Source of the DNA: a virus
DNA length: 38,335 bases
Virus record (IMG/VR): IMGVR_UViG_3300042553_000291
Span: 1 to 38,335 of that record
Strand: one strand, 5' to 3'
Shown: positions 4,462-36,661 of the stretch, one piece after another
How positions within the stretch are numbered: position 1 is the first letter of the stretch
How the letters are laid out: the number at the start of each line of letters is the position of its first letter
Made by a program: the position numbers and the translations under genes
The notes under the pieces: model-generated
What the model saw: the letters and a program-made list of their open reading frames with translations, nothing else
Databases searched by the model: none
What the model was told of the DNA's origin: nothing

Positions 4462-5264
4462 CAGTATGCCCCCACCAATTTTGCGAGTCGATCAACGGCC
4501 TGGATATATCCGTATGCCTCGGTTTCGCCTGCGTACTTTTCTTTCAACTGGTTCATCACCATCGTCTGCGGATCAGCAGGCTCAACCGTTACGCCACCCA
4601 TTGCCGATTGTGCCTGCTGCTGGTACTTCAGTTGCTTGCGCTGGTACAACTTGGCAAACGCTTCAGCATCTGAATCGTCCAGCCGGCGACCAAGCGTCTC
4701 GATGGCGACACGGTTGGCAATGACTTTCAGATCCTCGGCGGATGACAGCGTGTAACGCTTGACCGCTCCACCAGTCGGCTGCTCGTCGGGGCGGCCCTTG
4801 ATCTGGCTCAACAGATCGTTGTAGTCGGTCTGCGTCCAGTTTGCCTCAAGTAGCAACTTGCTGACCGCAGCCTCGTCGTCCTTCGTAATTCGGTTCGGCG
4901 ACGGCTTATCTTTCGTATCGTAGTAACCCTTGGCGAACAACGTGTCACGCAGATCGTTCCGCAAAACGTCGTTCATGCGGTTGTACAAAATGTCGTACGG
5001 ATCGTTGTTTAGGTCGTAGTAGCCCTCACGGGACAATGTGCCATCAAGCTTAAAAATACCAGCCTTCACTTTGTCCTTGCGTTTGTACCCAACCGGAACA
5101 CCGTAGTAAGACGACTGGTAACCCGTCGAGGACTGGCCTTGCGGGGAGGCGGCAGCAGCCGCAATCGCCTCAAGAATGGCAGCAAGATCGTCGTCGGGTG
5201 TTTGCCCCATCGGGGTGGCATCGGTTGTCTGTGCTTTTTTACTCGCCACTTGGATCCGTGTCAC
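4461..5264 (-). CDS. Structural-module protein of unknown function (267 residues)
   Basis: Begins with GTG at 5264, overlapping the end of the giant virion gene by 26 bases; a second in-frame GTG at 5249 would cut the overlap and cannot be excluded because neither has a strong ribosome site. The protein contains GYYDLNNDPYDILYN and a helical segment with a QRKQLKYQQQAQ stretch. No enzymatic signature is seen. It lies between two large virion genes and is translationally coupled to both, so a virion role is likely. Confidence 0.6.
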   Translation of the reverse strand: MTRIQVASKKAQTTDATPMGQTPDDDLAAILEAIAAAAASPQGQSSTGYQSSYYGVPVGYKRKDKVKAGIFKLDGTLSREGYYDLNNDPYDILYNRMNDVLRNDLRDTLFAKGYYDTKDKPSPNRITKDDEAAVSKLLLEANWTQTDYNDLLSQIKGRPDEQPTGGAVKRYTLSSAEDLKVIANRVAIETLGRRLDDSDAEAFAKLYQRKQLKYQQQAQSAMGGVTVEPADPQTMVMNQLKEKYAGETEAYGYIQAVDRLAKLVGAY

Positions 5265-8200
5265 TTTCTACTTCACGCGCCAGCACCCGATCATACAACC
5301 TGACGAAATCAGGGTATTTCTTCACTAGGGCAATTCCGTACTGCCGAAGCAGGTCGCGCAGGTCGCCGTCCTTGATTGAAGTCAGGCTGTTGCGACCCCG
5401 AGACTCCGCGATATCCAGAACCTGGCTGCGAACCGACAGGTAGTTGGCGACAGCATCGCGTACGGGGTTACCCTCAAGATCCTTGTCTTGGACAGCCTGC
5501 TCAAGCTGGCTGATCTGCCGGTTGAACTTCTGCGTGTCAAAAGACTGCAACGCCGCAAAACCTGGGTACTTCTTGCCAAGGGTTGTACGCAAAGCCTTCA
5601 ACAATGCCCGCTGCTCGTCGGTACGGTTGCCTGGGAACTTGTCGGCTGCCTGCTTGTACACCGCATTCGCCGCATTGAACTCGGCCTGATCAATGACCTC
5701 TCGACCCGTCTGTCGTTTGCGCTTGCCCTGCGACAACTGACGCGAAAACACAGCCATGTCCACCGTATTGTCATACGGCCCGAAGAGTCCGCCGACATCG
5801 CGGTAACGCTTGATCACGCCACCATTTTCGGCTTCCCATTTGCCGTACGCCTCGGTGATGTCCAGCCCACCGTATTGGGACTTGGTCTTTGCGCCGAGGT
5901 AAGCGACAGCGTCGGGGTAGAGCGACAGGAAGTTTGACACCGCCGTGTCATAGTCACCACCCTGCTCGGGATCCTGCAACTTACGAAGCTCAGAAGCGTA
6001 GAACGCGACCGGCAAATCGCCCTGCTCAAACTCAACCGCTGGCCGCGTCGGACCCATGAACTGCCCAAACGAACGCAGGACGGTCAGGGTTCGGGCGAGG
6101 CCGATGGCATCCTCAAACATACGCTCACGGTCGTTGATGTCGGAGGTGTTGTAGTCACCGCTTGAGTAGAGGTGCTGGACTACTTCGACGTAGGTCTGAC
6201 CCATGACACGACTGGTGTCGGGGCTGTCCCACACGCCCGAAACAAACTTCTGCAACCATGACGGGACAAACGCAGAACCACGAAGATCCGGTGTTCCGTA
6301 CGGCATCAGGAACTTCTGCACCTCGTCCGTCTTGGGGACGTTACGCAGGATGACCGACGCGGGGATCTGGGCTACGGGACCAAGACCAGGCGACAGCGAA
6401 AAACCCATGCTGAGGGTTTGGATCGGGGCGGTCAAAGTGGCATTGACTGCGCCAGCGTCCGAACCAAAACGGTTGAGAACCGGCACTTTGTTGAGAGCCT
6501 GCGAGACGGGGCCAGTCAACAAACCGATGAACTTGTCGGATAGCGGGTAGTTGAAAACGTACTGGCCAGTAACGGGATCCTTGTAGAAAAAGCCACGACC
6601 GTCGCCGTCAGGGTCGGCACCCTTGGCACCTTCGACCATGACGTTGGCGCGGCGAAGGATGCGTGGGTCGCTGACAACGAGTTTCGTCCACGTCTTGAGG
6701 ATTTCTCCCCATGCCTGACCGAACGGTGCGATGACGCGGGCAACGTCCGTCAGGTTGTTGCGGTCGGTTGCGTTGTACAACTCGCGCTTGACAGCATCCA
6801 AAGCGTGGCCCTTGGCAAACTCGTCCAACTGCTCAATGTTGAGGCGGCCAGCGCGGGTTTCATCAACAGCCTCAAGTTTCTTCCACAACGCCTTGGATCC
6901 GACGTATTGCTCCGGCTTGATGCCGAGCCGATCAGCCGTTTGTGCCACGCGGGTGCGGAGGGTTGCGATGGTTTCACCAGAAGCCACAGGCAGGATCGTC
7001 TCAACCTGCTCCCAGTAACGCTGACGGAACAACGGCGAACGGTCAAGATACGCAGTCGTGCGGCCAAACAACTGGCCGAAAAACTTGTCAACTGCGCCAT
7101 CCATACCCTGCAACGTGCGGCGGGCTGACTCGCTCTGAGAACCACGGGTCAAACGGCCAGCCGAAACACGCACCTCGTACTTGATCTTGCTGGGCAGAAG
7201 CGGAGCAGTAGCCTGATCATCGAGCAGACCGTTCATCGCCCGCTTGAACGCAGCCGTCGGGTTGCGGTTCTCATCCCACGCATTATTCAACAGCACCATG
7301 CGGCGGTTGCCCATATCATCAACCGAAGCGACACGACCGTAAGTGACCTCTTCGACGCGGCGGCCACGAACACGCTTGGCTTCACGCTTGACGACGTACA
7401 CCGTGCCGACATCACCCTTGCCAGGGCTGGTGAAAAACTTGCGAAGGTCAGATGTTTCCTTTGCCGTCAGCACCAACTCGTCACCGTTGCGGACCAAACC
7501 GAACGCGGCAACGTCACGCAGAATGTTGTCCGGCAGCGAGCCAACCTCGCCAGCCTTCAGGTTGAGGCGACCAGCAACGTAACGGTTGACGTAGTTACGA
7601 AGATTCCGCTCGTCAAGCATTGAGGCTTGAACGGTCTTGACTGCACCCGTCTCATCTACAAAACGGACACCAGCCTCAAACATTTCGTTAATTTCGTTCC
7701 AATGGGTGCGACCCTCTTGGGTTTCCCTAAACCAACGCATGACGGCTTCTTCATCCGCACCACGGGCAAGCATCCGCCCGACCGGATCATCATGCAACTG
7801 GCGCAACTCGTCGGCGTACCCCGCAATGTATTCAGTACGATTCGTCTTGGCTGCGGAACGGAAATCGCCCGAACGGATAGCCCGCATCTGGGCAGCAACT
7901 GGGTCACCGCCGTAACGGTGGTAGGAGTTACCGATGGCAGCGATGTATTCCTCATGGCTTGCCCGCATGAACTCATCAAGACTGGCAACCTCTTCAGCCT
8001 GCTGGCCACGAACCAAGAACCTGTTCGGTGCGTCCAACTGGTATGCCTTACCGAGAACGTCACCAGCTCCCTTCCAACCCGATGCCCACATGATGTGCTG
8101 AAGTGGGTGCTTAAAAATCGACGTGCGGGACAGCAACGTCATTCGGGCTTGGGCCTCTGCGATGTTACGAAGGACGTAACCACCAGTCATCAGGGTCAGC

Positions 8201-10965
8201 GGTCGCCACACGTCTTGCTGGATGAACTCGAGCATCGCCGCTGGCAGGCGCAACTGACCAGCCATCTCGGGGTTGGACTTACGGACACCCGTCACCCATC
8301 CGAGGCGTGACTGCAAACGACGCACTTGGCGTGGATCAGGCAGGTAAAGGTGGCGCGACAGCATTTCGGAACGCAAACCAGGCGAAGCCAACACACCGCC
8401 AGTCGGCACCAATTCGCCACCCTCATTGGGCAGCAAAGCCTTACCGAAACCGAAATCGGTAACATTCCCAGCCTCGTCAATCGCGTAGAGCGACTGTTCA
8501 GAGATGTTGCTGTAGTAAGAGTTGAGCAGTTCGTCAGCCAGATCGCCATCAATGCCAGAACGCACCAGTCCTTCGCGGACCATGCCACGGAACTTCTCGG
8601 CAACCTGATACAAATCGGCTCGGGCCGTGCCACGCGGCGGCAAGCCGATGGACTTGAACCGCTGCTCGACCCCATCAAGACGGGTCTGCGCCTCTTCAAG
8701 TTGTTTCGCTAAAGCACGGGCTGCTTTCAACGACTCGCCTTCCGTGCCGGACAACGCCAGACCGACCATCGCGGTGATCTCATCCTCATTAAATCCAGCC
8801 AATTCATCAACACGACCATTAAGCGCATCTTGAATAAACTCGGAAATGTTGTTGTCCAGACGACGTGCATTGAGTTGCGCTAATACTTCTGGGTCGCGGG
8901 TGGCATCAATGATTTCGTCAAATCTCAAACCCTCAAACTCACGCCCAAACAAAAATACTGGGTCGAGCCAATCACCCGCACTTCCGAACACTTTCAGACC
9001 AGCAAGACGAGTCCCTTTTGCCTGCGTTCCCCCCTTAAGAAACAATGGTCGCAAGGTGTCAATAATGTCCGCGTTACGGATGAACTCTTCAGCAAATTGA
9101 GCTGTGTTCATCGCAGCACCAACATCGCCCATATTGGACATTGCTTCATCGACTGCCACCAGTCGCCGCTTCGTACCACCCCTGTATGTGCCACCACCAA
9201 CATCGGAGCGGGATTCACCAAACTTCACCCAGCCACGCTTGCTGTATTCCCGAGGATCTATCAGTCGTGCAATGTCATCGGCCTCGCCTCCGAGGCGATT
9301 ACCGAACCGGTCATACCCACCTCGAGCATTACGAACGCCAACCTTGAGTGCTGATACTTGCGGTCGCAAAGTCTGGGGGTCAATTCCAATACCTGCCGAC
9401 CGCATCCATTCGACCGCAGTCTCAAACGTGTTCCGCAGTTGACCCAACTGATTCGGCTGACGCAACCACTCACGCAACGATGCACGGGTAAAGTTCTGGT
9501 TTGTTGCGCTTGGACCGAAAAAAGTCGCAACAAAACCTTCGGCAACAGCCTTCTGGGAAACAGCGGTTGACTGATCCTGAAGCGCAATCAGATCTTGGAA
9601 CGCAGTACGATGCTCGTCATCCAACGCGGATTCAGCAGCAGACTGCAATTTAGCGATCCGCTCCGACTTGACCTGCGGATCCATCACACCCGTGAATGCT
9701 CGGGCAAACTCTTCAATCACCGGCGCAGTCTCAGCCTCTGTGTACCCAGTCGCCCGCAACCAGCGATCCACGTTCTCGACGGCCTCGTCAATGCCGCGAT
9801 CCGATGCCCGCAGCGAAATGGCACGGGATGGCATCTTGTCAAACAACTTCGTGATTCGTGAACGCTCCGAAACTGACGGCTGTCCGCTGAAGATTGACTT
9901 GTACTTGATGTCATCAGTCTTGATAAGACCCGACTCAAGTCCGAGACGCGGAGCCAACACCGCCCGCACGTCCTCAACCGTCTTGGCATCGGTCAACGCC
10001 AACTGGGTACGGGTGGAAACATTCGGCAAAATCTTGCGCGTATCAGCAAGTGTCGCAGTCTCTGCCAATTTCTCGGTGACGCGGCGACCCGCACCAGAGT
10101 CAAGCCAGTTACGAGCCTTTGCGGGATCAATATTTCGTGCCGTGGCATACACACCACCAGCAGCAGTCAACGCATCTTCGGTTTTTGCAGCACCCGTAAT
10201 TCCCTCAATGACATCGTCGGCAAGCGGCAGGATCTTGCCGCGTGGCCCCCAGCTCGTAAGACCCCTTTTTGTCGCCCCAACCGCGCTAGCCCCTGGGACA
10301 ATGTAGTTGATCGGGTCGCCAGCAATAACAGCAGCAGCGTCAACCAAACCAGACAAAATGTTGTACGCCTCTGACCCAGGTTCGGCAACAAGCGCAGCAG
10401 CACCACGACCAGGAGTCCAAGCCTGCCCACCAACCGTTCCACGGTAACGCCTCGCACGATCAGCCTGATTCTTCTGCGCTTCGCCACCGATGAAATAACC
10501 CGAGCCAGACTTTTCGCCATCCTTGATCAACGATCCGAGTGATGTCGAGATAAAGAAACCGTTTGCAACGCCAGGGTCACCGCCCGCAAATACCTGACTA
10601 GCGACATTGACGACACTCTCATATGGCAAAGCCAAACCCGCAGCCGCATATTTGACACCAGTACGAAACGCTCCACCGATACCTTTCGGCTTGTCGGCTG
10701 CCGCGATACGGGCCTGACGTTCCGCAGACCCATTCACCAGACGCTGCGCCTCTGCTTTGGCCACAGTCTCAATCGTCTGCTCCGACGCATTTGACTTGGC
10801 AAGCGACAAAGCGACACCAGGCGTGATGTGCGGATACAAACGGTGGATCGCACCGGCACGATTCGCAGTCTCAAGCGTGTTGCGCTGTTGCGCTAACTTC
10901 TTCTGTCGCTCTTCTTCGTATTTGAGAGCCGCTTCTTCGTCACGAAAATCCGCAGCAAACGGCAT
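5239..10965 (-). CDS. Giant internal virion / ejection protein (1908 residues)
   Basis: The largest gene, about 15 percent of the genome. ATG 10965 shares one base with the preceding stop (TGATG). The protein is mostly helical, with hydrophobic stretches near residue 110 (AAAGLALPYESVVNVASQVF) and residue 215 (AAVIAGDPINYIVPGASA), a segment with RSPLFRQRYWEQV, then NATDRNNLTDVARVIAPFGQ and a C-terminal helical region. These resemble large structural proteins of actinophages that lack a tape measure. I see no polymerase, lysozyme or protease motif. It probably forms an internal core or the trans-envelope conduit used in genome ejection, as gp14-gp16 do in T7; that role is inferred. Confidence 0.72.
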   Translation of the reverse strand: MPFAADFRDEEAALKYEEERQKKLAQQRNTLETANRAGAIHRLYPHITPGVALSLAKSNASEQTIETVAKAEAQRLVNGSAERQARIAAADKPKGIGGAFRTGVKYAAAGLALPYESVVNVASQVFAGGDPGVANGFFISTSLGSLIKDGEKSGSGYFIGGEAQKNQADRARRYRGTVGGQAWTPGRGAAALVAEPGSEAYNILSGLVDAAAVIAGDPINYIVPGASAVGATKRGLTSWGPRGKILPLADDVIEGITGAAKTEDALTAAGGVYATARNIDPAKARNWLDSGAGRRVTEKLAETATLADTRKILPNVSTRTQLALTDAKTVEDVRAVLAPRLGLESGLIKTDDIKYKSIFSGQPSVSERSRITKLFDKMPSRAISLRASDRGIDEAVENVDRWLRATGYTEAETAPVIEEFARAFTGVMDPQVKSERIAKLQSAAESALDDEHRTAFQDLIALQDQSTAVSQKAVAEGFVATFFGPSATNQNFTRASLREWLRQPNQLGQLRNTFETAVEWMRSAGIGIDPQTLRPQVSALKVGVRNARGGYDRFGNRLGGEADDIARLIDPREYSKRGWVKFGESRSDVGGGTYRGGTKRRLVAVDEAMSNMGDVGAAMNTAQFAEEFIRNADIIDTLRPLFLKGGTQAKGTRLAGLKVFGSAGDWLDPVFLFGREFEGLRFDEIIDATRDPEVLAQLNARRLDNNISEFIQDALNGRVDELAGFNEDEITAMVGLALSGTEGESLKAARALAKQLEEAQTRLDGVEQRFKSIGLPPRGTARADLYQVAEKFRGMVREGLVRSGIDGDLADELLNSYYSNISEQSLYAIDEAGNVTDFGFGKALLPNEGGELVPTGGVLASPGLRSEMLSRHLYLPDPRQVRRLQSRLGWVTGVRKSNPEMAGQLRLPAAMLEFIQQDVWRPLTLMTGGYVLRNIAEAQARMTLLSRTSIFKHPLQHIMWASGWKGAGDVLGKAYQLDAPNRFLVRGQQAEEVASLDEFMRASHEEYIAAIGNSYHRYGGDPVAAQMRAIRSGDFRSAAKTNRTEYIAGYADELRQLHDDPVGRMLARGADEEAVMRWFRETQEGRTHWNEINEMFEAGVRFVDETGAVKTVQASMLDERNLRNYVNRYVAGRLNLKAGEVGSLPDNILRDVAAFGLVRNGDELVLTAKETSDLRKFFTSPGKGDVGTVYVVKREAKRVRGRRVEEVTYGRVASVDDMGNRRMVLLNNAWDENRNPTAAFKRAMNGLLDDQATAPLLPSKIKYEVRVSAGRLTRGSQSESARRTLQGMDGAVDKFFGQLFGRTTAYLDRSPLFRQRYWEQVETILPVASGETIATLRTRVAQTADRLGIKPEQYVGSKALWKKLEAVDETRAGRLNIEQLDEFAKGHALDAVKRELYNATDRNNLTDVARVIAPFGQAWGEILKTWTKLVVSDPRILRRANVMVEGAKGADPDGDGRGFFYKDPVTGQYVFNYPLSDKFIGLLTGPVSQALNKVPVLNRFGSDAGAVNATLTAPIQTLSMGFSLSPGLGPVAQIPASVILRNVPKTDEVQKFLMPYGTPDLRGSAFVPSWLQKFVSGVWDSPDTSRVMGQTYVEVVQHLYSSGDYNTSDINDRERMFEDAIGLARTLTVLRSFGQFMGPTRPAVEFEQGDLPVAFYASELRKLQDPEQGGDYDTAVSNFLSLYPDAVAYLGAKTKSQYGGLDITEAYGKWEAENGGVIKRYRDVGGLFGPYDNTVDMAVFSRQLSQGKRKRQTGREVIDQAEFNAANAVYKQAADKFPGNRTDEQRALLKALRTTLGKKYPGFAALQSFDTQKFNRQISQLEQAVQDKDLEGNPVRDAVANYLSVRSQVLDIAESRGRNSLTSIKDGDLRDLLRQYGIALVKKYPDFVRLYDRVLAREVESDTDPSGE

Positions 10966-13198: not shown

Positions 13199-15172
13199 CT
13201 AGACAGCCAGCCACGTCGGTCGCCATTGACGCGGCGGTGCTTTCAGCGGACGCAACTGCGGCAGGTGCAACTCGGCAAACCAATGCGCCATGACAAGGTC
13301 AGTACCCCGCTTCTTGTCGCGGGTCCAAGTACACATCTCGTCCACAAGAGCCATCGTTTTCCAGTTCTCCACCATCGTCGGCAGCCGGATCGACCCCGAA
13401 CGCCACAGCGGAGGCAACAAAGCCTCGACACCGAGCGATTCGTCCAGCTTGTTCCGCGATGTGGTATGCGGAACCACGTTCACTTGATGCAAAGCCTGCC
13501 AACGACGCACAAAATCGTGGGCCAATAGATACCGCTGGGCCGCGTTGATCTCGATAATCCAATGGGTGATCGGGTAGCCCAAATCAACAGACCGGTTCTG
13601 CCACTCTTCCATGATCCCCGAATACTTCCCCGAAGCCACGTCGTAACCCAACAGTTCTTCGGCGGTCATCTTCGGACGCTCAAGGTCAATCAGATACCGC
13701 AGGTTCGTCTCGGGCTGGAACAGCCACCACTCCACACCCCAAAAGTTCTGTGCGGACGGGTCAACCGAAGCCACGGAAATGATCGGCGGGTGCAGATACT
13801 GGGGGATGTGACCAGGTCGGCGGCCACGGTCAATGCAGCCTGGGTACTCGACACCGTCCTTGCCGACCCCACCCACCGCATGGACACGGTCGATCAAGGC
13901 TTCTTCGATGTCGATGTCCTCTTGCTGGTACACCACCCGAAACTTGTTCGGATTCGAGTGCCGAATGTATGACAGATCCTTCCACGACAAACGGAACGGA
14001 TCCAACAACGGACCCTCAGGCCACGCCAGTGCGTCCTTACGCCGCGACTCAGGCCCAGTATCCAGTTCCTCGTAATACGCTTTGTAGACGATGTGGTGAT
14101 ACTTCTGATGCTTCGTCGGTTCCCGCTCCGCCCGCTTCGACACATCCGTAACATCCGAACCGTCATACCCGTCCTCGTCTAGATCGTCGTAGGTGTACTT
14201 CGCCAAACAATGCGCGTACAGGTCATTGCTCGAAAGACGCTGACCGATCACCACCAACAGTCCACCTGGATCGACGCGGGCCTCCGCCATCGAATCCCAC
14301 CGCTCGATCAGCTTGTCACGGGACGCAGAATCTTTCGCGTTCTCTGTCGTCGCAACGTCATCATACAGACACAAGTCGGCGCGGTGACCAATGAACTCCG
14401 AATCGATACCGTACGCGGCAACAGTCGGTTCCTTGTTGTCCAACCCGCCAATGTCCAACTGCTCGACAATGAACTCTTCGGCTCGCCACATGGAGCCGGC
14501 AGCGGCAGGCTTGAACCGCCCATAATCCGTAGCCAAACACCCCTCGGCATTCAGAGCCATGCCCTTCTTCACCAACTCAGGGTCAGGCTTCAGAGGGTAC
14601 GACCGCTCGAGAGTTTCACGGATACGCCGCGAATACTGCTTCGCCAGTTTTTCTGTGTTCGACCCGATCAGCACACGGATCCCACGGTTGCGGACAATCG
14701 CCCACACAGCCACATCATGGAACAACGTGGACTTGCCAGCACCAGGCGGACAATTCAGAACAAGATGTTCCTTCTCCTGAGACTCCAAATACTGAACAAT
14801 CTTGTATGCGGCCTCAACCTGCCACGGGGAGGGGACGCGACCGAGGTACACCCGTCGGAAATAATCAAAATCCTCCAACCCCTTCTTCGCCCTCGCAGAC
14901 AACCGAGAAGCCGGAATAACGGGTGGCAGACCATCCTCCACCTCCTGCACGATCTTCAGCGCAGTACGGTTGTAGTCCTTCGCCTTCGCCTGCACCTCAT
15001 CAAACTCAGCGATCTTCGCCTCAGCAACAGCTTTCCTCTTCTGGGCATCCCAACGCTGACCCGTGTTGTAGTTGATCCCCGCAACCTTCGAGGACTCCTT
15101 GATCGTCAGACCCGAAGCGCGGGCCTGCCAAAACCTTGCAACATCCTCAACCGGAACAGTACGTTTGCCCAT
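13199..15172 (-). CDS. terL: Terminase large subunit with N-terminal helix-turn-helix
   Basis: 657 residues; the DNA-packaging motor ATPase and headful nuclease. Walker A is CPPGAGKST at residues 141-149, Walker B is LCLYDD at 267-272. The nuclease domain shows an Asp in SVDPSA (about 471), a Glu in IIEINAAQR (541) and an Asp in GTDLVMAHWF (about 624). Residues 1-55 form an extra domain with GLTIKESSKVAGINYNTGQR, a helix-turn-helix like that of small terminases. ATG 15172 overlaps the methyltransferase stop (TAATG). No separate small terminase gene is visible, so this fused domain may supply DNA recognition. Confidence 0.93.
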   Translation of the reverse strand: MGKRTVPVEDVARFWQARASGLTIKESSKVAGINYNTGQRWDAQKRKAVAEAKIAEFDEVQAKAKDYNRTALKIVQEVEDGLPPVIPASRLSARAKKGLEDFDYFRRVYLGRVPSPWQVEAAYKIVQYLESQEKEHLVLNCPPGAGKSTLFHDVAVWAIVRNRGIRVLIGSNTEKLAKQYSRRIRETLERSYPLKPDPELVKKGMALNAEGCLATDYGRFKPAAAGSMWRAEEFIVEQLDIGGLDNKEPTVAAYGIDSEFIGHRADLCLYDDVATTENAKDSASRDKLIERWDSMAEARVDPGGLLVVIGQRLSSNDLYAHCLAKYTYDDLDEDGYDGSDVTDVSKRAEREPTKHQKYHHIVYKAYYEELDTGPESRRKDALAWPEGPLLDPFRLSWKDLSYIRHSNPNKFRVVYQQEDIDIEEALIDRVHAVGGVGKDGVEYPGCIDRGRRPGHIPQYLHPPIISVASVDPSAQNFWGVEWWLFQPETNLRYLIDLERPKMTAEELLGYDVASGKYSGIMEEWQNRSVDLGYPITHWIIEINAAQRYLLAHDFVRRWQALHQVNVVPHTTSRNKLDESLGVEALLPPLWRSGSIRLPTMVENWKTMALVDEMCTWTRDKKRGTDLVMAHWFAELHLPQLRPLKAPPRQWRPTWLAV

Positions 15173-15639
15173 TACCGCCCGAACCGTACTACGGCAGATG
15201 GGAACGGTGCCGCATTCGGGCCATCATTGAACCGCAACCTGCCCCGAAGAAATGTCACGCTTGCACCACCATCAATAACGAAATCATGCCACCAACCAGT
15301 ATCGGTCCGCGCAGGAACAACACACACAACAACACAACCAGCCCGTGAACTAAACAACGCTTTCTCCATCCATCTACCAATCCCCCGACCATACGGAGGA
15401 TTCAAGAACACCGGCTCGCCCCCAGCATCCGCACACCAATCCCGCAGAAAAGCATCACGCCGCGACACGTCAGGATGATCGGGGCCATACCAGTTACCTG
15501 GCACAAGAGTCGAACATTGAAGCGCAGCAGCGTCCAACTTAAATTGGTACTCCCCATTCAACTGCTCAAACAAAAAACGCGGGGTACGCCACGTTTCATC
15601 AGCCGAACTGAACGCTTGCGGAGAAGAAAAAAAGCCCAT
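15172..15639 (-). CDS. Phage DNA N-6-adenine methyltransferase (Dam-type)
   Basis: 155 residues. I take ATG 15639, seven bases after a GAAGGGA site; a TTG one codon upstream is possible. It shows the short phage Dam layout: SADETWRTPRFLFEQLN near the N-terminus, KLDAAA, then the catalytic FLNPPYG (D/NPPY) motif at about residues 78-84, and VVPARTDTGWW. It transfers a methyl group from S-adenosylmethionine to adenine. No partner restriction enzyme is present, so it is an orphan enzyme, likely protecting phage DNA or marking it for packaging or transcription. Its coupling to terL is by TAATG. Confidence 0.88.
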   Translation of the reverse strand: MGFFSSPQAFSSADETWRTPRFLFEQLNGEYQFKLDAAALQCSTLVPGNWYGPDHPDVSRRDAFLRDWCADAGGEPVFLNPPYGRGIGRWMEKALFSSRAGCVVVCVVPARTDTGWWHDFVIDGGASVTFLRGRLRFNDGPNAAPFPSAVVRFGR

Positions 15640-15664
15640 CAAAAAATCCCTTCAAGATGGTGGA

Positions 15665-16129: not shown

Positions 16130-16455
16130 ACCATTCCACGATGCGGAATAGCAACACATATCGGGAAGAGGTAATACCCCCTACCCGCCCGCGCGTGGCT
16201 CGGCAGACCCCCAGTCGATGGGGTGCCGGCTCGCTCGATTCTGCCCGCCCATAACAGCTCTTATGTAAAATGGCAGCCGATCGGACAAAACATCGCCCGA
16301 AATACCCTCCTCCCGCACCCGATACGGCGCGACAGACCCCCCCCGCCGGCGGCAATCGACCCGCCCGCGCATGATTCCCGCCTACGTTCCGTGCCACGTT
16401 CTGGCCGTTCACGTTGCCCACGTTCTCACCCGCATTGCCGCCCCCCATGCAGCAC

Positions 16456-16486
16456 AAAGGCCGCCCCACCCGAAAGCGAGACGGCC
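16456..16486 (-). terminator. Intrinsic terminator at the end of the GC-rich operon
   Basis: On the minus strand GGCCGTC (16486-16480) pairs with GGCGGCC (16465-16459), seven pairs with one G-T, followed by TTT. It begins 26 bases after the last gene of the Cys-rich operon, exactly where a terminator is expected. The short T run makes it moderate. Confidence 0.45.
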
Positions 16487-16511
16487 CCTATGCCGCTAGT
16501 GGTATGACGTT

Positions 16512-16853
16512 TCAGTTAGGCGGCAAATCTTCGCCGCATTCACGACACTCAACCCCGCACGAACAATCACGCGCGAAATCACCACACGACCGACACCGGC
16601 CCGCCGACGTGATGCCGACATACTCAACCGCCGCCCCACACGCCGCACACACCTGCACCACGTCGAGCCGCACCCGATCAGACGACACCCACGCCCGACC
16701 CCGACCCGCGACAGGCTCGACCAGGTAGTCACGCCGCCCGAACACTTGCCGCACGTCGTGAACGGTAACCCGAACCGAAATAGGAACCCGATCCGATGTC
16801 AGATCGAGCGACCCAACCCGCCCCAACAGCTCGACAACCTCCGCCGCCGTCAC
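16512..16853 (-). CDS. Cys-rich protein with eight-cysteine C-terminus (113 residues)
   Basis: Last gene of the six-gene operon. GTG 16853 overlaps the preceding stop as GTGA. Residues 1-68 are Val/Arg rich with a VPISVRVTVHDVRQVFGRR stretch that could be a small beta domain. Residues 69-106 carry eight cysteines in the order CAAC, CRSC, CSC, CREC, enough for two zinc knuckles or one metal cluster. Codon use is very GC-rich like its operon neighbours and unlike the structural genes. I do not recognise a family beyond zinc-ribbon-like. A nucleic-acid or protein-binding role is possible. Confidence 0.7.
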   Translation of the reverse strand: MTAAEVVELLGRVGSLDLTSDRVPISVRVTVHDVRQVFGRRDYLVEPVAGRGRAWVSSDRVRLDVVQVCAACGAAVEYVGITSAGRCRSCGDFARDCSCGVECRECGEDLPPN

Positions 16854-17017
16854 CCGTTACCCCTAACAATCACATCGGCCAACGCCGCAAGCGTCACCGC
16901 GTCAGGGTCTACCCGATACCCTTCGCGCGGTTCCCGCGAGACGTGAGACACCGACACCCCGACGCACGCCGCGCCAGGTTCAGCCCCACAACGCGGGCAA
17001 CGATACCCCAACCACAT
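16850..17017 (-). CDS. Zinc-binding mini-protein (55 residues)
   Basis: Starts ATG 17017, nine bases after the preceding stop, and ends in a GTGA overlap with the next gene. The protein opens MWLGYRCPRCGAEPGAAC, with cysteines at residues 7, 10 and 18: the CPxCGAxPGxxC pattern is a recurrent zinc-binding motif in actinobacterial and actinophage proteins, usually completed by a His downstream (HVSRE here, about residue 25). The rest is a short helix (DAVTLAALADVIV). Function unknown. Confidence 0.68.
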   Translation of the reverse strand: MWLGYRCPRCGAEPGAACVGVSVSHVSREPREGYRVDPDAVTLAALADVIVRGNG

Positions 17018-17025
17018 CGGACGAT

Positions 17026-17499
17026 TCACGCCGTCACCGTCCCCGCGTCGAAACTAACCACCGTCGCCGGCTGACCTTGTGCAGCATCGAAGAACCCCGA
17101 AAACGTGACCGAATACTTGCCGACCACTTGAGGCACCGCCGTTTTCAACCGACCGCCCCAGGTATGCCAGTCTGCCAACGCGAGCCGCACAACGTCGCCC
17201 GCCGTCTCAATCTTCACGGCCTTTATCGTCTCCCGTGCTTTGCCGTCGATCGTGACAAACACAAGCGGAGCAGCCCCGTGCCACTCATACGCCACCAACG
17301 ACCCCGCCGGCGAAACCGTGACAGTCAACCCCGCCGAAACGATGTCCGCCGCCGTGATCGCGTCGAGCTTGTCAGCCCCGCCGAGATCGTAGGCCGCCGT
17401 TCCGCCCGTATTCGGAGCGTGAAACGCGAAAGACCCACAAAGTGGGCAAGTACCGACACCGTCGGCCACCTTCCCACATCTAAAACACTCTGCCAACAT
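17026..17499 (-). CDS. Zinc-ribbon protein with C-terminal beta-rich domain (157 residues)
   Basis: I choose ATG 17499 because AGAAGGGA lies upstream at good spacing and the zinc ribbon begins at once; longer in-frame starts run into the neighbour. CxxC at residues 5-8 and CPLC at 18-21 form a rubredoxin-type ribbon. The remaining 130 residues look beta-rich (TVTVSPAGSLVAYEW, KYSVTFSGFFDAAQG). No enzymatic motif is recognised. It follows the membrane protein gene by two bases and is clearly co-translated with the operon. Its ribbon head resembles those of its neighbours, suggesting a shared binding mode. Confidence 0.7.
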   Translation of the reverse strand: MLAECFRCGKVADGVGTCPLCGSFAFHAPNTGGTAAYDLGGADKLDAITAADIVSAGLTVTVSPAGSLVAYEWHGAAPLVFVTIDGKARETIKAVKIETAGDVVRLALADWHTWGGRLKTAVPQVVGKYSVTFSGFFDAAQGQPATVVSFDAGTVTA

Positions 17500-17501
17500 G
17501 A

Positions 17502-17816
17502 CTATTTCCCTTCTACTTGTGACGACGACGGCCAGACGACCGCCGCGAACGTGAACCCAAGCCCGACGAACACGCCGAACCAACTACCCGCACCCTCATT
17601 AGCCGCATCGAATGCACGACCCGCGCCGTACACCCCGACCAACCCAACGACCCAACGAAACCCGACGACAACCGCCGCCGGCAACCGTCGAGCCGCCCGC
17701 CGTGGCGGATTCTTCCACCCATTAGCCACCGCAAAACACGACGGGCAGACCCGTTCCGCCATCAGATAGCACCAGTCATGCGAATGACACCGACCCCCGC
17801 ACCTTTCGCACCTCAT
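17502..17816 (-). CDS. Zinc-ribbon membrane protein (104 residues)
   Basis: ATG 17816 overlaps the gp88-like stop as ATGA. Residues 1-27 hold six cysteines and two histidines (MRCERCGGRCHSHDWC, then CPSC), a compact metal-binding head. After a basic stretch (PPRRAARR) come two hydrophobic segments, about residues 46-62 (LPAAVVVGFRWVVGLVGVYG) and 77-96 (SWFGVFVGLGFTFAAVVW), consistent with two membrane spans. A cytosolic metal-binding head on a membrane hairpin is an uncommon layout for so small a phage protein. Function unknown; membrane targeting of the operon's activity is an inference. Confidence 0.7.
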   Translation of the reverse strand: MRCERCGGRCHSHDWCYLMAERVCPSCFAVANGWKNPPRRAARRLPAAVVVGFRWVVGLVGVYGAGRAFDAANEGAGSWFGVFVGLGFTFAAVVWPSSSQVEGK

Positions 17817-18796
17817 GCGGACACCCCCCGACGCACTTGGAGCCGTTGCCACGTTGCCGCAGCACCCGCCCCGCCATGCCGTAGAAAGGCAATGTCCCGC
17901 ACCCGCGAGCCAGGGAGACACGCCGCACACGACGCACACGCCCCCACGGTAGGCCCATGATCGAGCGAGGCCCGCCGACCGTCCGCCCCGACGACGTACG
18001 CCGGCCCGAGATCATCTTCAGCCCATACACCCGACGCGGGACAGATCAGACCCACGGCCTTTTCACCCCGCACCGAATCAACCACGGCCCGAAGCAAAGC
18101 AAGCTCGGCGCGATCCTTCGCAAGGTATGCCACCGGCAAGCCGTAACGCGCCGCCGCTACAGAATGCGTCCCGACGTTGTCAGCGTCTACCGACACAAAC
18201 CACCGCGCATTAGCGGGCAACGATGACCGCCCGAAAAGGTTAGTGAGATACCTAACCGACCGCGTATAGCCCCAAAACGAAACCGACGGCCTCGCCCGCT
18301 GAACATCACGCACCGCCGACGCGAACCACGGCGCGAAAAGATCACCCGACGACAACCACCGAAACGACGGGGACGCGACACCCGCCGCCACTTGCAGCGC
18401 GTAAGAACGATCTACCAACGCCGTCAGCGCGTCCACGACGGCCCCTTGTCCGTATTCCTTCAGCCGTTCGAGCGTTGCCAGGTTGCGCGAAACCATCTCC
18501 GAAAATGCCGCGAACGGCCCGCCTTCCATGCGTGCCGCGTAGCACGACTGGCAAGCGTTCACCGAGTATTGCGGACAAGTTCCGCCAATCTCAAGCGGCC
18601 CCGAAGGTAACCCGAAGGCGTTAGGAATGATCGAGACAGGCCGCCGACCTTCCGCCCAATAACCCGCCGGCCCCGTCTTGGAATCCGCGTGAAGCTGAAG
18701 CGGCCCCGCCGGAGTTTCGACCCGCACCCTAATTGGCCGATCCGATAGCGCGACCGTGGCAACGTGTGCCGACCTTTTGAGTGTCGCCGTAGTCAT
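17813..18796 (-). CDS. gp88-like phage protein with two cysteine clusters (327 residues)
   Basis: ATG 18796 overlaps the preceding stop as ATGA. It matches the pattern of the gp88 family known from mycobacteriophages: an early DSKTGPAGYW stretch, a first cluster C74-C82-C85 (CPQYSVNACQSCYAARM), a central RWLSSGDLF and FWGYTRS, and a second cluster C252 with C287-C290-C293 (CASCAACLPG) then an IAFLRHGG end. Seven or more conserved cysteines suggest a metal or iron-sulfur cluster. The biochemical role of the family is not known to me. It is the largest protein of the GC-rich operon and probably its core. Confidence 0.75.
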   Translation of the reverse strand: MTTATLKRSAHVATVALSDRPIRVRVETPAGPLQLHADSKTGPAGYWAEGRRPVSIIPNAFGLPSGPLEIGGTCPQYSVNACQSCYAARMEGGPFAAFSEMVSRNLATLERLKEYGQGAVVDALTALVDRSYALQVAAGVASPSFRWLSSGDLFAPWFASAVRDVQRARPSVSFWGYTRSVRYLTNLFGRSSLPANARWFVSVDADNVGTHSVAAARYGLPVAYLAKDRAELALLRAVVDSVRGEKAVGLICPASGVWAEDDLGPAYVVGADGRRASLDHGPTVGACASCAACLPGSRVRDIAFLRHGGAGAAATWQRLQVRRGVSA

Positions 18797-19164
18797 GCCG
18801 CACCGCCAACCACGTCACCAACAACGCGACCCGAGGCCCGCACAATGTAGGCGATGATCTCGCAAGTATCCGGCCCCCATTCTTTCCCGTTCAATACTTC
18901 CGCTATCTGATCGAGCCAACCGAAACCCGCCGACCACAACCCCGCGACGATCTCGGGAACCTGGCCCGCAATCGTTGCCGCCGTGATCGAGTGAACCGCG
19001 CCGCACGTTTCCCGATACTGCAAAACTTCGAGACAATCCCCGCACAACACGCCGAAACACTCAACCGAAGGCGTATCCGCCCACAATCCCGCCCCCGTCA
19101 TGTCCTGCCAGGTGGCAACCTTCAGCGCAAAAGCTTCAGCCCCGCACCCTGTACAAATGGCCAT
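18793..19164 (-). CDS. Cys-rich protein opening the gp88-like operon (123 residues)
   Basis: ATG 19164 is chosen because GGAAGGGGG lies just upstream and the CxxC motif follows at residues 4-7 (MAICTGCGAE); a longer frame to 19236 would swallow the promoter. A second group, CFGVLCGDC (about residues 36-44), and two later cysteines complete a possible zinc site. The C-terminal half is a hydrophobic/helical region (VHSITAATIAGQVPEIVAG). It overlaps the gp88-like gene by ATGA. Not recognised beyond a zinc-ribbon-like head. Confidence 0.68.
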   Translation of the reverse strand: MAICTGCGAEAFALKVATWQDMTGAGLWADTPSVECFGVLCGDCLEVLQYRETCGAVHSITAATIAGQVPEIVAGLWSAGFGWLDQIAEVLNGKEWGPDTCEIIAYIVRASGRVVGDVVGGAA

Positions 19165-19203
19165 GTTCGGCCCCCTTCCTGGCCGACCCAATGCCGGCCA
19201 CAC

Positions 19204-19250
19204 GTCATTATGACATGAGCGTATGACGCTTAGCAAGTAATGACGCTAAG
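19204..19250. promoter_or_regulatory. Operator-like repeats over the operon promoter
   Basis: GTCAT-T-ATGAC (19204-19214) is a perfect palindrome covering the -10. ATGACGCTTAG (19223-19233) and ATGACGCTAAG (19240-19250) are direct repeats 17 bases apart that cover and flank the -35, and their CTTAG/CTAAG ends also pair as an inverted repeat. This density of symmetry over one promoter strongly suggests a repressor or activator site. Confidence 0.5.
19207..19236 (-). promoter_or_regulatory. Candidate promoter of the gp88-like operon
   Basis: On the minus strand TTGCTA (19236-19231) is followed after 18 bases by CATAAT (19212-19207), a good -35/-10 pair; the start site would give a leader of about 36 bases before the ATG at 19164 with its GGAAGGGGG site. 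It is the best promoter I can find in the window and lies at the head of a self-contained operon. Confidence 0.6.
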
Positions 19251-19323
19251 AACATAACTACCCCCGCCGCGTAAGTGTGCTGCCACCGTCGCCGGCGCGC
19301 CGATCATGCCCCACAATGCCCGC

Positions 19324-19542
19324 ATGACCGCGCCGAAGATCGAGCCGCCCCGCGCCAAGCTCGCCGCCGATCACCTTGCCGACCGTCTCGCCGTGATCGT
19401 CGGCGGCCCGATGACACCCCCGCGCCATGCCATAACTACCCCGCTAATTAGTTGCGCGACACAAACAACCCAGACCACCACCCTCGGACGGGCGGCCACC
19501 GATCCGGCCACCCTCGAGCCGGCGGGGGACTTTCACCACTAA
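19324..19542 (+). CDS. Doubtful plus-strand small gene (72 residues)
   Basis: A frame starting ATG 19324 (MTAPKIEPPRAKLAADHLAD) whose first 30 codons nearly all end in G or C, and which is followed on the same strand by a terminator at 19623-19678. Against it: no ribosome site, no recognised family, and the C-terminal half is Thr-rich and unconvincing. The local DNA is GC-rich in any case. Kept only because the terminator orientation calls for some plus-strand transcript. Confidence 0.18.
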   Translation: MTAPKIEPPRAKLAADHLADRLAVIVGGPMTPPRHAITTPLISCATQTTQTTTLGRAATDPATLEPAGDFHH

Positions 19543-19579
19543 GGGCGAGCTGCCCGAATGCGTTCACCACTAAGGGCGA
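19532..19579. repeat. Two 17-base direct repeats, 31 bases apart
   Basis: TTCACCACTAAGGGCGA occurs at 19532-19548 and again, identical, at 19563-19579. The 31-base period is close to three helical turns, placing both copies on the same DNA face. They lie in non-coding DNA and could be paired operators or a minimal iteron set. Confidence 0.6.
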
Positions 19580-19622
19580 CTCATCAAACTGAGACACACA
19601 AAGTCTGATAGTCTCACGCTCC

Positions 19623-19678
19623 GAAACCCCGCGCCGACAGGTATCCCCTTCCCTGCTCAGGCTGCGGGGTTTCTTTTT
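19623..19678 (+). terminator. Plus-strand intrinsic terminator candidate
   Basis: GAAACCCCGC (19623-19632) pairs perfectly with GCGGGGTTTC (19664-19673), ten pairs, and is followed on the plus strand by TTTTT (19674-19678). On the minus strand no T run follows. The 31-base loop is long for a terminator but contains a small self-complementary CCTGCTCAGG. Its right arm overlaps the last codons of the HNH gene. Confidence 0.45.
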
Positions 19679-20175
19679 CTCCTGAGAAACTGCACCAGCA
19701 GGACATCACGCTTGGAGAAATTGCAGGATCGGCAGCAAGCCTCGAGGTTCCCGACCGAATGCCGACCACCCTTGGCTATCGGGACACGGTGATCGATGGT
19801 GTCGGCAGGCAGACCACAGATGTAGCAGGGCCGCCGGCGCAGCCTGCGAATGTCAGCCTCGGTGACCAGGAAGATCCCGTTTTCTTTCAGCCTTCGGTCG
19901 CGGCGCATACGCCCAGCATGAACACGATCATGGTGCCGCTTGCGGTACGCGGCCATGTCGGCACGGATCTTGTCCCGATTCTCGGCTCTATACAAACGCT
20001 TGTATTCCTGACGCTGCTCGCGGTGCGTCTCGGCGTAGCGTCTAGCAGCTTCCCTCGAACGCTCCAAGTTCTGGGTCCGGTAAAGCCTCAAGTAGTGACG
20101 ATTGCAGAGTCCCTTGCCCTTGGCGGGCAGGTTGCACTCTGATTCGCTGCAATTCCCTCGCCGCTTGCGCGTCAC
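19657..20175 (-). CDS. HNH endonuclease
   Basis: 172 residues from GTG 20175. The N-terminal zinc motif CSESECNLPAKGKGLCNRHY is the usual head of phage HNH enzymes of this type; a long Arg-rich helix follows (residues 35-105). The HNH core lies at about residues 118-160: CYIC, then TIDHRVPIAKGG, then a final CCRSCN with the Asn and zinc-binding cysteines, all intact. It cuts DNA and may be a homing enzyme or take part in packaging, but it is far from the terminase here. The 5' 134 bases overlap the end of the WhiB gene in another frame. Confidence 0.88.
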   Translation of the reverse strand: MTRKRRGNCSESECNLPAKGKGLCNRHYLRLYRTQNLERSREAARRYAETHREQRQEYKRLYRAENRDKIRADMAAYRKRHHDRVHAGRMRRDRRLKENGIFLVTEADIRRLRRRPCYICGLPADTIDHRVPIAKGGRHSVGNLEACCRSCNFSKRDVLLVQFLRRKRNPAA

Positions 20176-20422
20176 GTTCAGATTGTAGACCGCGCCGTTC
20201 CTTCGGTGTCAGGCCACCCCACATCCCGAACCTGCGCGGCTGCTCGAGTTCGTTCCGCATCGCCTGCTCAAGGCATTCCTTCTGCACTTCGCACGTTTCG
20301 CACAAGGCTCGGGCCTCCCGAAACGCCACCTTGTCGCTGATCCCCACCAGGTCTGGGAAGAACACGGTGCCGGCAACCCCGACACAGTTCCCCCGACGCA
20401 TCCATCTAGGTCTTTCGATCAT
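20042..20422 (-). CDS. WhiB-family iron-sulfur transcription regulator
   Basis: 126 residues, ATG 20422. The four cluster cysteines are present as C13, C41-ETC-C44 and C50 (CETCEVQKEC), followed by the family turn GMWGG at 66-70 and TPKERR. WhiB proteins bind a 4Fe-4S cluster and the main sigma factor and are confined to Actinobacteria and their phages, which fixes the host phylum. The 45 residues after the core are Gln/Arg rich and encoded by DNA that also encodes the HNH N-terminus. Phage WhiB proteins can reprogram host transcription or block host septation and superinfection. Confidence 0.9.
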   Translation of the reverse strand: MIERPRWMRRGNCVGVAGTVFFPDLVGISDKVAFREARALCETCEVQKECLEQAMRNELEQPRRFGMWGGLTPKERRGLQSERDAQAARELQRIRVQPARQGQGTLQSSLLEALPDPELGAFEGSC

Positions 20423-20566: not shown

Positions 20567-21523
20567 CTATGACATATCTGGAAGGCTTGGCATCACAGAA
20601 TCTAAACGCCGTTGCGCTATGGCAACATAATCGTCGTTCAATTCACAACCAATGTAATTCCGCCCGTGTTTCAGCGCGACAACGCCGACCGTTCCAGAAC
20701 CACTAAACGGATCCAAAATCGTGTCATCAATTCTGCTCGTTGCCAAAACACAAGGTTCCACCAATGCTTCGGGCATTACAGCAAAATGCGCTTCCCGAAA
20801 TGGCTTAGTCGTGATCGTCCACACAGACCTTTTATTTCTGGTGCCTTTGTCTGTGTATGTGTTCCCGGACTTTGTCGCGTGTTTCGGGTCGTTCGAGTCA
20901 CCGTATTTTGAGCCGCCGAACCGGATGTTGGTTTGTCCTAGTTGTGCTGATGGCTCCGCGATTGCTTCATTGTTGAAGTAATATCGTGCGGATTTTGTCA
21001 GCATGAATAGGTATTCGTGAGATTTGGTGCAGCGGTCGCGGACGCTTTCTGGCATCGGATTTGGTTTGTGCCAAATGATGTCTTGCCGCAAGTACCACCC
21101 ATCTGCTTGCAGAGCAAACGCTACGCGCCACGGAATGCCCACAAGATCCTTGTGTTTTATGTCCGTGCCGACAAACGATGAAGACATCCGGTTTGCTGCG
21201 CTGCCTTTCGGAACCAAGGTTCCCGTGTTAGATCCACGAACCGTGTCTGGAATTGCTTTTCCGTCGCGGAAACTCGCGTAACTATCGCCCAAATTGAGCC
21301 ATAGCACACCATCGTCAGATAAAACCCGATGTACTTCGCGGAACACAGATACCAGTTCAGCGATGTAATCGTTGGGATTCTGCTCTAGCCCAATTTGCCC
21401 ATCATGGCCGTAATCCCGCAACCCCCAGTAGGGAGGTGACGTTACGCAGCATTGAATTGACCGGTCAGCAATTTGTGCCAGCGTTTGGCGAACGTCCCCT
21501 ATGAGTATTTTGTACTCGTTCAT
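20567..21523 (-). CDS. Site-specific DNA methyltransferase (amino-methylating, beta-type order)
   Basis: 318 residues from ATG 21523 (a TTG three codons earlier is possible). Catalytic motif IV TSPPYWGL lies at about residues 30-37, before the AdoMet-binding motif I DPFSGSGTVG near residue 285; this order is that of beta-type N4-cytosine or N6-adenine enzymes. A middle region with KHKDLVGIPWRVAFALQ and the long variable segment are typical of solitary phage enzymes. No cognate nuclease is present. Probably protects phage DNA from host restriction. The specificity cannot be read from sequence. Confidence 0.9.
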   Translation of the reverse strand: MNEYKILIGDVRQTLAQIADRSIQCCVTSPPYWGLRDYGHDGQIGLEQNPNDYIAELVSVFREVHRVLSDDGVLWLNLGDSYASFRDGKAIPDTVRGSNTGTLVPKGSAANRMSSSFVGTDIKHKDLVGIPWRVAFALQADGWYLRQDIIWHKPNPMPESVRDRCTKSHEYLFMLTKSARYYFNNEAIAEPSAQLGQTNIRFGGSKYGDSNDPKHATKSGNTYTDKGTRNKRSVWTITTKPFREAHFAVMPEALVEPCVLATSRIDDTILDPFSGSGTVGVVALKHGRNYIGCELNDDYVAIAQRRLDSVMPSLPDMS

Positions 21524-21535
21524 TTGGCCCAACGA

Positions 21536-36368: not shown

Positions 36369-36661
36369 GTTATGTATGCCCCGTATCCAGCAGCAGTCAG
36401 GTCAGCGACCTCCTGCTCGTCCACTTCGATGTCGTGGCCCCCATAATAGACCTTGACGATCAGGTCATAGTCGGACGGTTGTCCGTCGGTGTAGGTGCCG
36501 TCAACAAGTTTGTAGATGTTGCGACCGCGTGACGCATTGCGGATGTGGTAACCAAGTTGGTTGGCGAAGCGTTCGTCAATGGAAAGTGGGAATGCCCCAC
36601 TCGGATCTTCTGGCAGTACGAATGCCACAAAGTTGTCGGTTGGTGGTCTGAATGTAGCCAT
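36365..36661 (-). CDS. Small fibre-associated protein sharing the C-terminal domain of its neighbour (98 residues)
   Basis: ATG 36661 shares its A with the preceding stop (TAATG). Its last 50 residues (NIYKLVDGTYTDG, then VKVYYGGHDI, EV, LTAAGYGAYIT) match the C-terminus of the 353-residue repeat protein encoded just upstream. The N-terminal half (VLPEDPSGAFPLSIDERFAN) differs but aligns loosely with the region before the shared domain. A tail-tip or fibre role is likely by association. Confidence 0.68.
   Translation of the reverse strand: MATFRPPTDNFVAFVLPEDPSGAFPLSIDERFANQLGYHIRNASRGRNIYKLVDGTYTDGQPSDYDLIVKVYYGGHDIEVDEQEVADLTAAGYGAYIT

What the first reader, a model, noticed from the sequence alone, without database searches (positions are those of the whole stretch)
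16456..19250. Self-contained operon of six Cys-rich proteins around a gp88-like protein
Seen: six genes (123, 327, 104, 157, 55 and 113 residues) read left on the minus strand. Most are joined by ATGA or GTGA overlaps and the rest lie 2-9 bases apart. Five of the six begin with, or end in, CxxC metal-binding motifs, and the sixth is gp88-like with two cysteine clusters. They have their own promoter with operator-like repeats and their own terminator, and sit in DNA visibly richer in GC than the neighbouring modules, between two long non-coding stretches. One member has two membrane spans. Inference: this is a horizontally acquired functional module, possibly a metal or iron-sulfur dependent complex brought to the membrane, perhaps for host takeover or anti-defence. 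I know of no description of this set.
Basis: partly seen in the sequence, partly recalled or inferred. Interest (0 to 1): 0.82.

Follow-up and report, generated by a model that had tools for sequence, protein, structure and literature searches.

The report
Swappable phage cassette around GP88 enzyme
An uncultured actinobacterial phage carries an exchangeable gene cassette whose one stable member, GP88, looks like an iron-sulfur (radical-SAM-like) enzyme, and distant chromosomal relatives of GP88 lie among bacterial anti-phage defence genes, which suggests a role in virus-host or virus-virus conflict.

Summary
The six genes are real and tightly packed (four 4-base overlaps, one 2-base gap). They are richer in G+C and cysteine than the rest of the genome, have a promoter-like site over direct repeats, and end in a conserved hairpin. 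They are a cassette, not a fixed six-part complex. Close IMG/VR relatives keep GP88-C-D and a short F at the same place. Gene A is optional, slot E holds unrelated Cys-rich genes, and F's zinc-like tail is an insertion seen only here. Six relatives with the same flanks at 55-67% terminase identity lack GP88. GP88 is a known Pfam family (PF17338) of unknown function. Its predicted fold is a six-strand (beta-alpha) barrel with an invariant three-Cys loop. The best structural neighbours are radical SAM enzymes (Z up to 7, suggestive only), and a profile match ties it to the Gp37/Gp68 family (DUF5131). In six Geodermatophilaceae chromosomes GP88 lies beside restriction, DISARM-, Hma-, Pbe- or RT-type defence genes; random regions of the same contigs do not show this. 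Those copies are one clade, distant from the window's. I conclude: an acquired accessory cassette built on a radical-SAM-like enzyme, probably early-expressed and used in phage-host or phage-phage conflict; mechanism unproven.

The parts
19207..19236 (-). sigma-70-like promoter, -35 TTGCTA, 18-nt spacer, extended -10 CATAAT
   Evidence: consensus scan; -10 box and AGCGTCATTACTTG conserved in 5 relatives
19223..19256 (.). two 17-nt direct repeats overlapping the promoter (operator-like)
   Evidence: two-copy pattern occurs once in the window, 0 in 100 shuffles
19237..19656 (.). non-coding leader, 80-98% identical in relatives, with two 31-nt tandem repeats at 19515-19576
18793..19164 (-). gene A, 123 aa, N-terminal CxxC...CxxC, C-terminal D-T-x-x-I-A-x-I-V-R-A-S-G-R module; optional, absent in L007, without its Zn part in L005
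17813..18796 (-). gene B, GP88 family (PF17338), predicted radical-SAM-like (beta-alpha)6 protein; Cys 74/82/85 and 252/287/290/293
17502..17816 (-). gene C, 104 aa, N-terminal CxxC and two hydrophobic spans
17026..17499 (-). gene D, 157 aa, N-terminal zinc ribbon with C5, C8, C18, C21 invariant in 8 sequences
16850..17029 (-). gene E, 59 aa, Phage_zn_bind_8-like (PF24623); slot holds unrelated Cys-rich ORFs in L007, L008 and L013, nothing in L005 and L006
16512..16853 (-). gene F, 113 aa; first 64 aa conserved and Cys-free in relatives
16515..16661 (-). 49-codon in-frame Cys-rich tail of F, absent from all relatives compared
16443..16502 (-). long UUCG-capped hairpin after F, terminator-like, conserved with compensatory changes
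19657..20175 (-). upstream flank: HNH endonuclease gene (then WhiB 20042-20422)
15172..15642 (-). downstream flank: Dam-like methyltransferase, replaced by another ORF in some relatives; then terminase 13199-15172

Best explanation
This is an accessory cassette, acquired as a block into a variable locus between WhiB/HNH and the terminase genes. It has its own predicted promoter and terminator. Its stable core is GP88, predicted to be a radical-SAM-like enzyme: a three-Cys loop after the first barrel strand would hold a [4Fe-4S] cluster and cleave S-adenosylmethionine, and a C-terminal Cys-x..-C-x2-C-x2-C group would hold a second metal site. Small zinc-ribbon proteins come and go around it as cargo or adaptors. 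The likely role is early in infection, in conflict: excluding rival phages or blunting host defence by modifying a nucleic acid, nucleotide or protein. Shown: gene structure, conserved linkage in the clade, swapping of small genes, absence from more distant relatives, the Cys pattern, defence-island position of one chromosomal GP88 clade. Inferred: Fe-S cluster, SAM chemistry, early expression in this phage, role in conflict.
For: Linkage and swapping; absence in six relatives with the same flanks. Composition. Purifying selection on GP88 (72 synonymous vs 14 nonsynonymous codon changes against L002; 96 vs 26 against L005). Seven Cys invariant in 49 relatives; a diverged GP88 in Mycobacterium phage Kampy keeps only the N-terminal triad. 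AF2 model pLDDT 87: 9 of the 12 best VIA rows are radical SAM enzymes (lipoyl synthase Z 7.0, PFL activase 6.8, viperin-like 6.7). BFVD hit to a Gp37/Gp68-like protein, E 6e-6. Profile match to DUF5131-type proteins: probability 82%, score 44.8, against at most 26.0 in 40 block-shuffles and 15 reversed, with Cys, GDLF, YTR/TKR and SVD/GVS motifs in register. Early expression of the family: Kampy genes 82-88, which include its GP88 gene 87, dominate at 5 min (PMC4626039). Defence islands: all six Geodermatophilaceae GP88 loci lie beside RT_III-A plus McrBC, McrBC, HEC-05/GmrSD plus a C5 methylase, PbeA, DrmD or HmaA; 79 proteins from 12 regions of the same contigs gave four hits, none of them an effector or helicase of these systems.
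Against: VIA Z below 8 may be only a common barrel, and other TIM barrels score 5-6.9. Foldseek against PDB gave no significant hit. Cys spacing (Cx6-7Cx2-3C) is not the canonical CxxxCxxC, and Pfam Radical_SAM is not matched. The six defence-island GP88 copies form one clade about 30% identical to the window's protein, so the link to this phage is by family only; phage-derived genes also gather in such islands. In mycobacterial and Streptomyces phages GP88 has no Cys-rich neighbours. The DUF5131 profile was built from proteins found by a Cys-motif pattern, not by the curated model. Promoter and terminator are sequence predictions.
Confidence: 0.5

Rival explanations
1. GP88 belongs to a nucleic-acid modification or anti-restriction set: with the methyltransferases around it, it modifies phage DNA or RNA to escape host restriction.
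For: N6/N4 and Dam methyltransferases flank the locus. C5 methylases lie near GP88 in L021, L025, L127 and L119. Chromosomal GP88 sits beside modification-dependent restriction genes such as McrBC and GmrSD.
Against: Methyltransferases are common in phages; Dam is replaced by another ORF in close relatives that keep GP88; no GP88-methylase operon was seen.
Confidence: 0.2
2. The cassette is a generic collection of small early accessory genes. GP88 has a housekeeping-like role (for example RNA or protein modification for takeover) and the Zn-ribbon genes are unrelated transcription-modulating cargo.
For: Small genes are swapped freely; relatives without GP88 also carry small CxxC genes in this interval, including an E-like protein in L293; GP88 has no Cys-rich neighbours in other phages.
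Against: Does not explain the defence-island clade, nor why GP88 stays 89-96% identical while its neighbours change.
Confidence: 0.25
3. GP88 and the five small proteins form one fixed metal-dependent membrane complex.
For: Overlapping genes; one member with two hydrophobic spans; CxxC in all.
Against: A and E are dispensable or replaced and F lacks its Cys tail in relatives.
Confidence: 0.05

Closest known systems
GP88 family, Pfam PF17338 (PHROG 1392), phage gene product 88
   Same: Over the curated cut-off; same Cys triad and GDxF, YTR, SVD motifs; 363 phage records and at least 550 IMG/VR stretches encode relatives
   Different: Only 25-33% identical to Streptomyces and Mycobacterium phage members; longer; sits in a Cys-rich overlapping operon not seen around GP88 elsewhere
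Gp37/Gp68 (DUF5131, PF07505) three-Cys-motif phage proteins
   Same: Profile alignment over 133 columns with Cys loop, DLF, TKR and GVSxEN motifs in register
   Different: No match to the PF07505 model itself; different C-terminus (Cys group in GP88)
Radical SAM enzymes (lipoyl synthase, PFL activase, viperin-like)
   Same: Predicted six-unit barrel, three-Cys loop after strand 1
   Different: Non-canonical Cys spacing, middling Z, no sequence match, chemistry untested
Mycobacteriophage/Gordonia phage-encoded defence genes (for example Sbash, CarolAnn, Butters)
   Same: Accessory early or lysogenic genes of actinophages acting in phage conflict (PMC6426596, PMC6426606, PMC7542560; titles and abstracts read only)
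   Different: No sequence comparison was made; lysogeny of this phage is unknown; no activity known

Membership tests
GP88 (PF17338) | score over Pfam gathering cut-off | tested here: met
   85.9 bits against 24.4
Radical SAM superfamily | match to a Radical_SAM Pfam model | tested here: not met
   only GP88 matched at E up to 1
Radical SAM superfamily | canonical CxxxCxxC | tested here: not met
   Cx6-7Cx2-3C; non-canonical spacings exist in the superfamily (own knowledge)
Radical SAM superfamily | (beta-alpha)6 partial barrel with Cys loop after strand 1 | tested here: inconclusive
   AF2 model has this order; best VIA rows are radical SAM but Z at most 7.0
Radical SAM superfamily | [4Fe-4S] cluster and SAM cleavage | not testable with these tools
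   needs protein
DUF5131 / Gp37-Gp68 (PF07505) | match to PF07505 model | tested here: not met
   no match at E up to 10 in the window
DUF5131 / Gp37-Gp68 (PF07505) | shared ancestry by profile comparison | tested here: inconclusive
   82% probability, well above controls; comparison set selected by Cys motif
Moron-type accessory cassette | extra genes absent between the same flanks in relatives | tested here: met
   six relatives with the WhiB-TerL interval lack GP88
Moron-type accessory cassette | own promoter and terminator | tested here: inconclusive
   conserved sequence signals; no expression data for this phage
Moron-type accessory cassette | expression from a prophage | not testable with these tools
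   lysogeny unknown
Anti-phage defence gene | defence-island location | tested here: inconclusive
   met for one chromosomal GP88 clade in six genomes; not applicable to the phage copy
Anti-phage defence gene | protects cells from phage | not testable with these tools
   needs experiment
Phage_zn_bind_8 (PF24623), gene E | score over cut-off | tested here: met
   27.5 against 24 bits

The most novel reading that the evidence does not exclude
GP88 is a widespread, undescribed radical-SAM-type family used as a weapon in phage conflict: carried by bacterial defence islands and, as an early cassette with exchangeable zinc-ribbon partners, by phages themselves.
Probability: 0.3. Interest if true: 0.8.

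Novelty: new variant of a known kind. Interest (0 to 1): 0.55.

Why it matters
GP88 is present in hundreds of actinophages, including mycobacteriophages where a member lies in the first-transcribed genes, yet has no known function. A radical-SAM-like prediction and a defence-island association would make its role directly testable. Prokaryotic viperins are known antiviral radical SAM enzymes, so a second such family would be notable.

Tried and rejected
DNA-level search for the block in 50,697 phage records: no match. tblastn of A, C, D, E and F in the same collection: none. NCBIfam and PADLOC on the six proteins: nothing useful. PDB sequence search with GP88 and its profile: nothing. Foldseek of the GP88 model against PDB: no significant hit. 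AF2 of D: pLDDT 67, no usable match. Rfam: nothing. First scan of genome contigs: none; the second gave 13 loci. Literature: no paper found on PF17338 or DUF5131 in the held library, and a structural annotation of mycobacteriophages does not mention radical SAM. L5 itself was not in the collection. General link between GP88 and Cys-rich neighbours: rejected after looking at five annotated phages. DUF932 lies near GP88 in 15 of 33 loci but adds no clear mechanism.
Full report
What is there. The window is an IMG/VR virus record of 38,335 bases. A WhiB gene is next door, which points to an actinobacterial host. Six minus-strand ORFs fill 16512-19164, joined by four 4-base overlaps and one 2-base gap. 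Gene B matches Pfam GP88 (E 4.7e-24) and gene E matches Phage_zn_bind_8 (E 2.6e-6); A, C, D and F match no family over its cut-off. GC is 0.63 against 0.57 for the other genes, and codon use lies outside every one of 1000 random gene sets from the same genome. A promoter-like site with an extended -10 overlaps two direct repeats, and a very stable hairpin follows F.

The set is not fixed. Close relatives (TerL about 98% identical or more where present) carry the block in the same place, between HNH/WhiB and the terminase. Against the window, GP88 is 89-96% identical at protein level and under purifying selection. C is 66-71% in tblastn, D is 67-83%. A is present in L002 and L003, altered in L005 and L006, and missing in L007, where GP88 follows the leader directly. 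E's slot holds unrelated Cys-rich ORFs in L007, L008 and L013 and is empty in L005 and L006. F is 64 residues and free of Cys in relatives; the window has 49 extra codons, rich in CxxC, inserted just before the stop. At DNA level the cassette genes are 72-93% identical to the window's over the same contigs in which WhiB, TerL and portal are 93-99% (A and short segments aside), so the block is exchanged or evolves faster. The 440-base leader is 80-98% identical although non-coding, and the hairpin stem in L008 differs in sequence but still pairs.

It was acquired, or is lost often. Six relatives at 55-67% TerL identity that cover the WhiB-TerL interval (L283, L293, L294, L297, L303, and L304, whose WhiB-like ORF was recognised by eye) have no GP88 there. 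Several carry other small genes on the opposite strand, some of them CxxC-rich, and L293 has an E-like protein (35%). The interval is therefore a variable accessory locus, and small zinc-ribbon genes are part of its general cargo. No match to A, C, D, E or F was found in 50,697 phage records.

What GP88 is. The family occurs in 363 phage records and at least 550 IMG/VR stretches. Across 49 relatives, seven Cys are invariant: 74, 82, 85 and 252, 287, 290, 293. Kampy gp87, also GP88 by Pfam (E 1.4e-35), keeps only the first triad, so the triad is the family core. The AlphaFold model (pLDDT 87) shows six strand-helix units with the triad in the loop after the first strand. VIA-align ranks radical SAM enzymes in 9 of its first 12 rows, but with Z at most 7.0, which alone is not proof. 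Foldseek found nothing significant in PDB, but among viral models found GP88 members and a Gp37/Gp68-like protein. I collected 111 phage proteins with the Gp37/Gp68-type Cys motif and compared profiles: 82% probability, score 44.8, against at most 26 for 40 shuffled and 15 for reversed controls, with four motifs in register. I therefore call it radical-SAM-like and do not file it as a radical SAM family member, because the canonical spacing and the Pfam model are not met.

What it may do. Kampy RNA-seq shows genes 82-88 dominating at 5 minutes (PMC4626039), and its gene 87 is the GP88 gene, so at least one member is immediate-early. In bacteria GP88 is rare: 6 of 115 Geodermatophilaceae genomes and 2 of 396 sampled Actinomycetota. 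In all six Geodermatophilaceae the gene lies within about 6 kb of known defence genes: RT_III-A and McrBC (L116), McrBC (L118), HEC-05/GmrSD and a C5 methylase (L119), PbeA- and UvrD-type helicases (L120), DrmD (L121), HmaA (L122). Twelve other regions of the same contigs, 79 proteins, gave four hits at the same threshold: a TAP-like protein, a dGTPase, a WYL regulator and mad3. The tree puts the six in one clade, far from the window's protein, so this is family-level evidence and may reflect one entry into such islands. Nearer relatives of the window's GP88 lie close to tyrosine-recombinase-like genes, another usual place for accessory cargo.

Conclusion. The idea of a six-part complex is not supported. 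The best reading is an accessory cassette with a conserved radical-SAM-like enzyme and interchangeable zinc-ribbon proteins, probably used in phage conflict. The chemistry and the target are unknown.

Noticed in passing
window 19165-19656: Non-coding leader 80-98% conserved across relatives, with two 31-nt tandem repeats (19515-19576) and two exact CATAACTACCCC copies; may hold a regulatory RNA or replication/regulatory element.
   Followed up: partly
window 15172-15642 and 20567-21532: Dam-like and N6/N4 methyltransferase genes lie on either side of the cassette; in some close relatives the Dam position is taken by a different ORF of about 245 aa.
   Followed up: partly
L283, L297, L304, L298 upstream of TerL: In relatives the WhiB-TerL interval carries opposite-strand accessory genes, including ORFs that look like a sliding clamp (DnaN-like, by eye only).
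   Followed up: no
L068:6178-7197 and 14 other loci: A DUF932 gene lies within about 2.5 kb of GP88 in 15 of 33 representative loci.
   Followed up: partly
L119:4124-5611 and L121:4126-5613: A shared 495-aa protein (weak PDC-M09B match) precedes GP88 in two Geodermatophilus genomes whose downstream defence genes differ (HEC-05 against DrmD), as in a defence hotspot.
   Followed up: partly
window 5239-10965: Single 1908-aa ORF after the portal gene with no Cys; only about 30-55% identical in many relatives that keep TerL at 60-99%.
   Followed up: no
window 36661-37722: ORF with many repeats of an RTATGSGTG-like unit.
   Followed up: no
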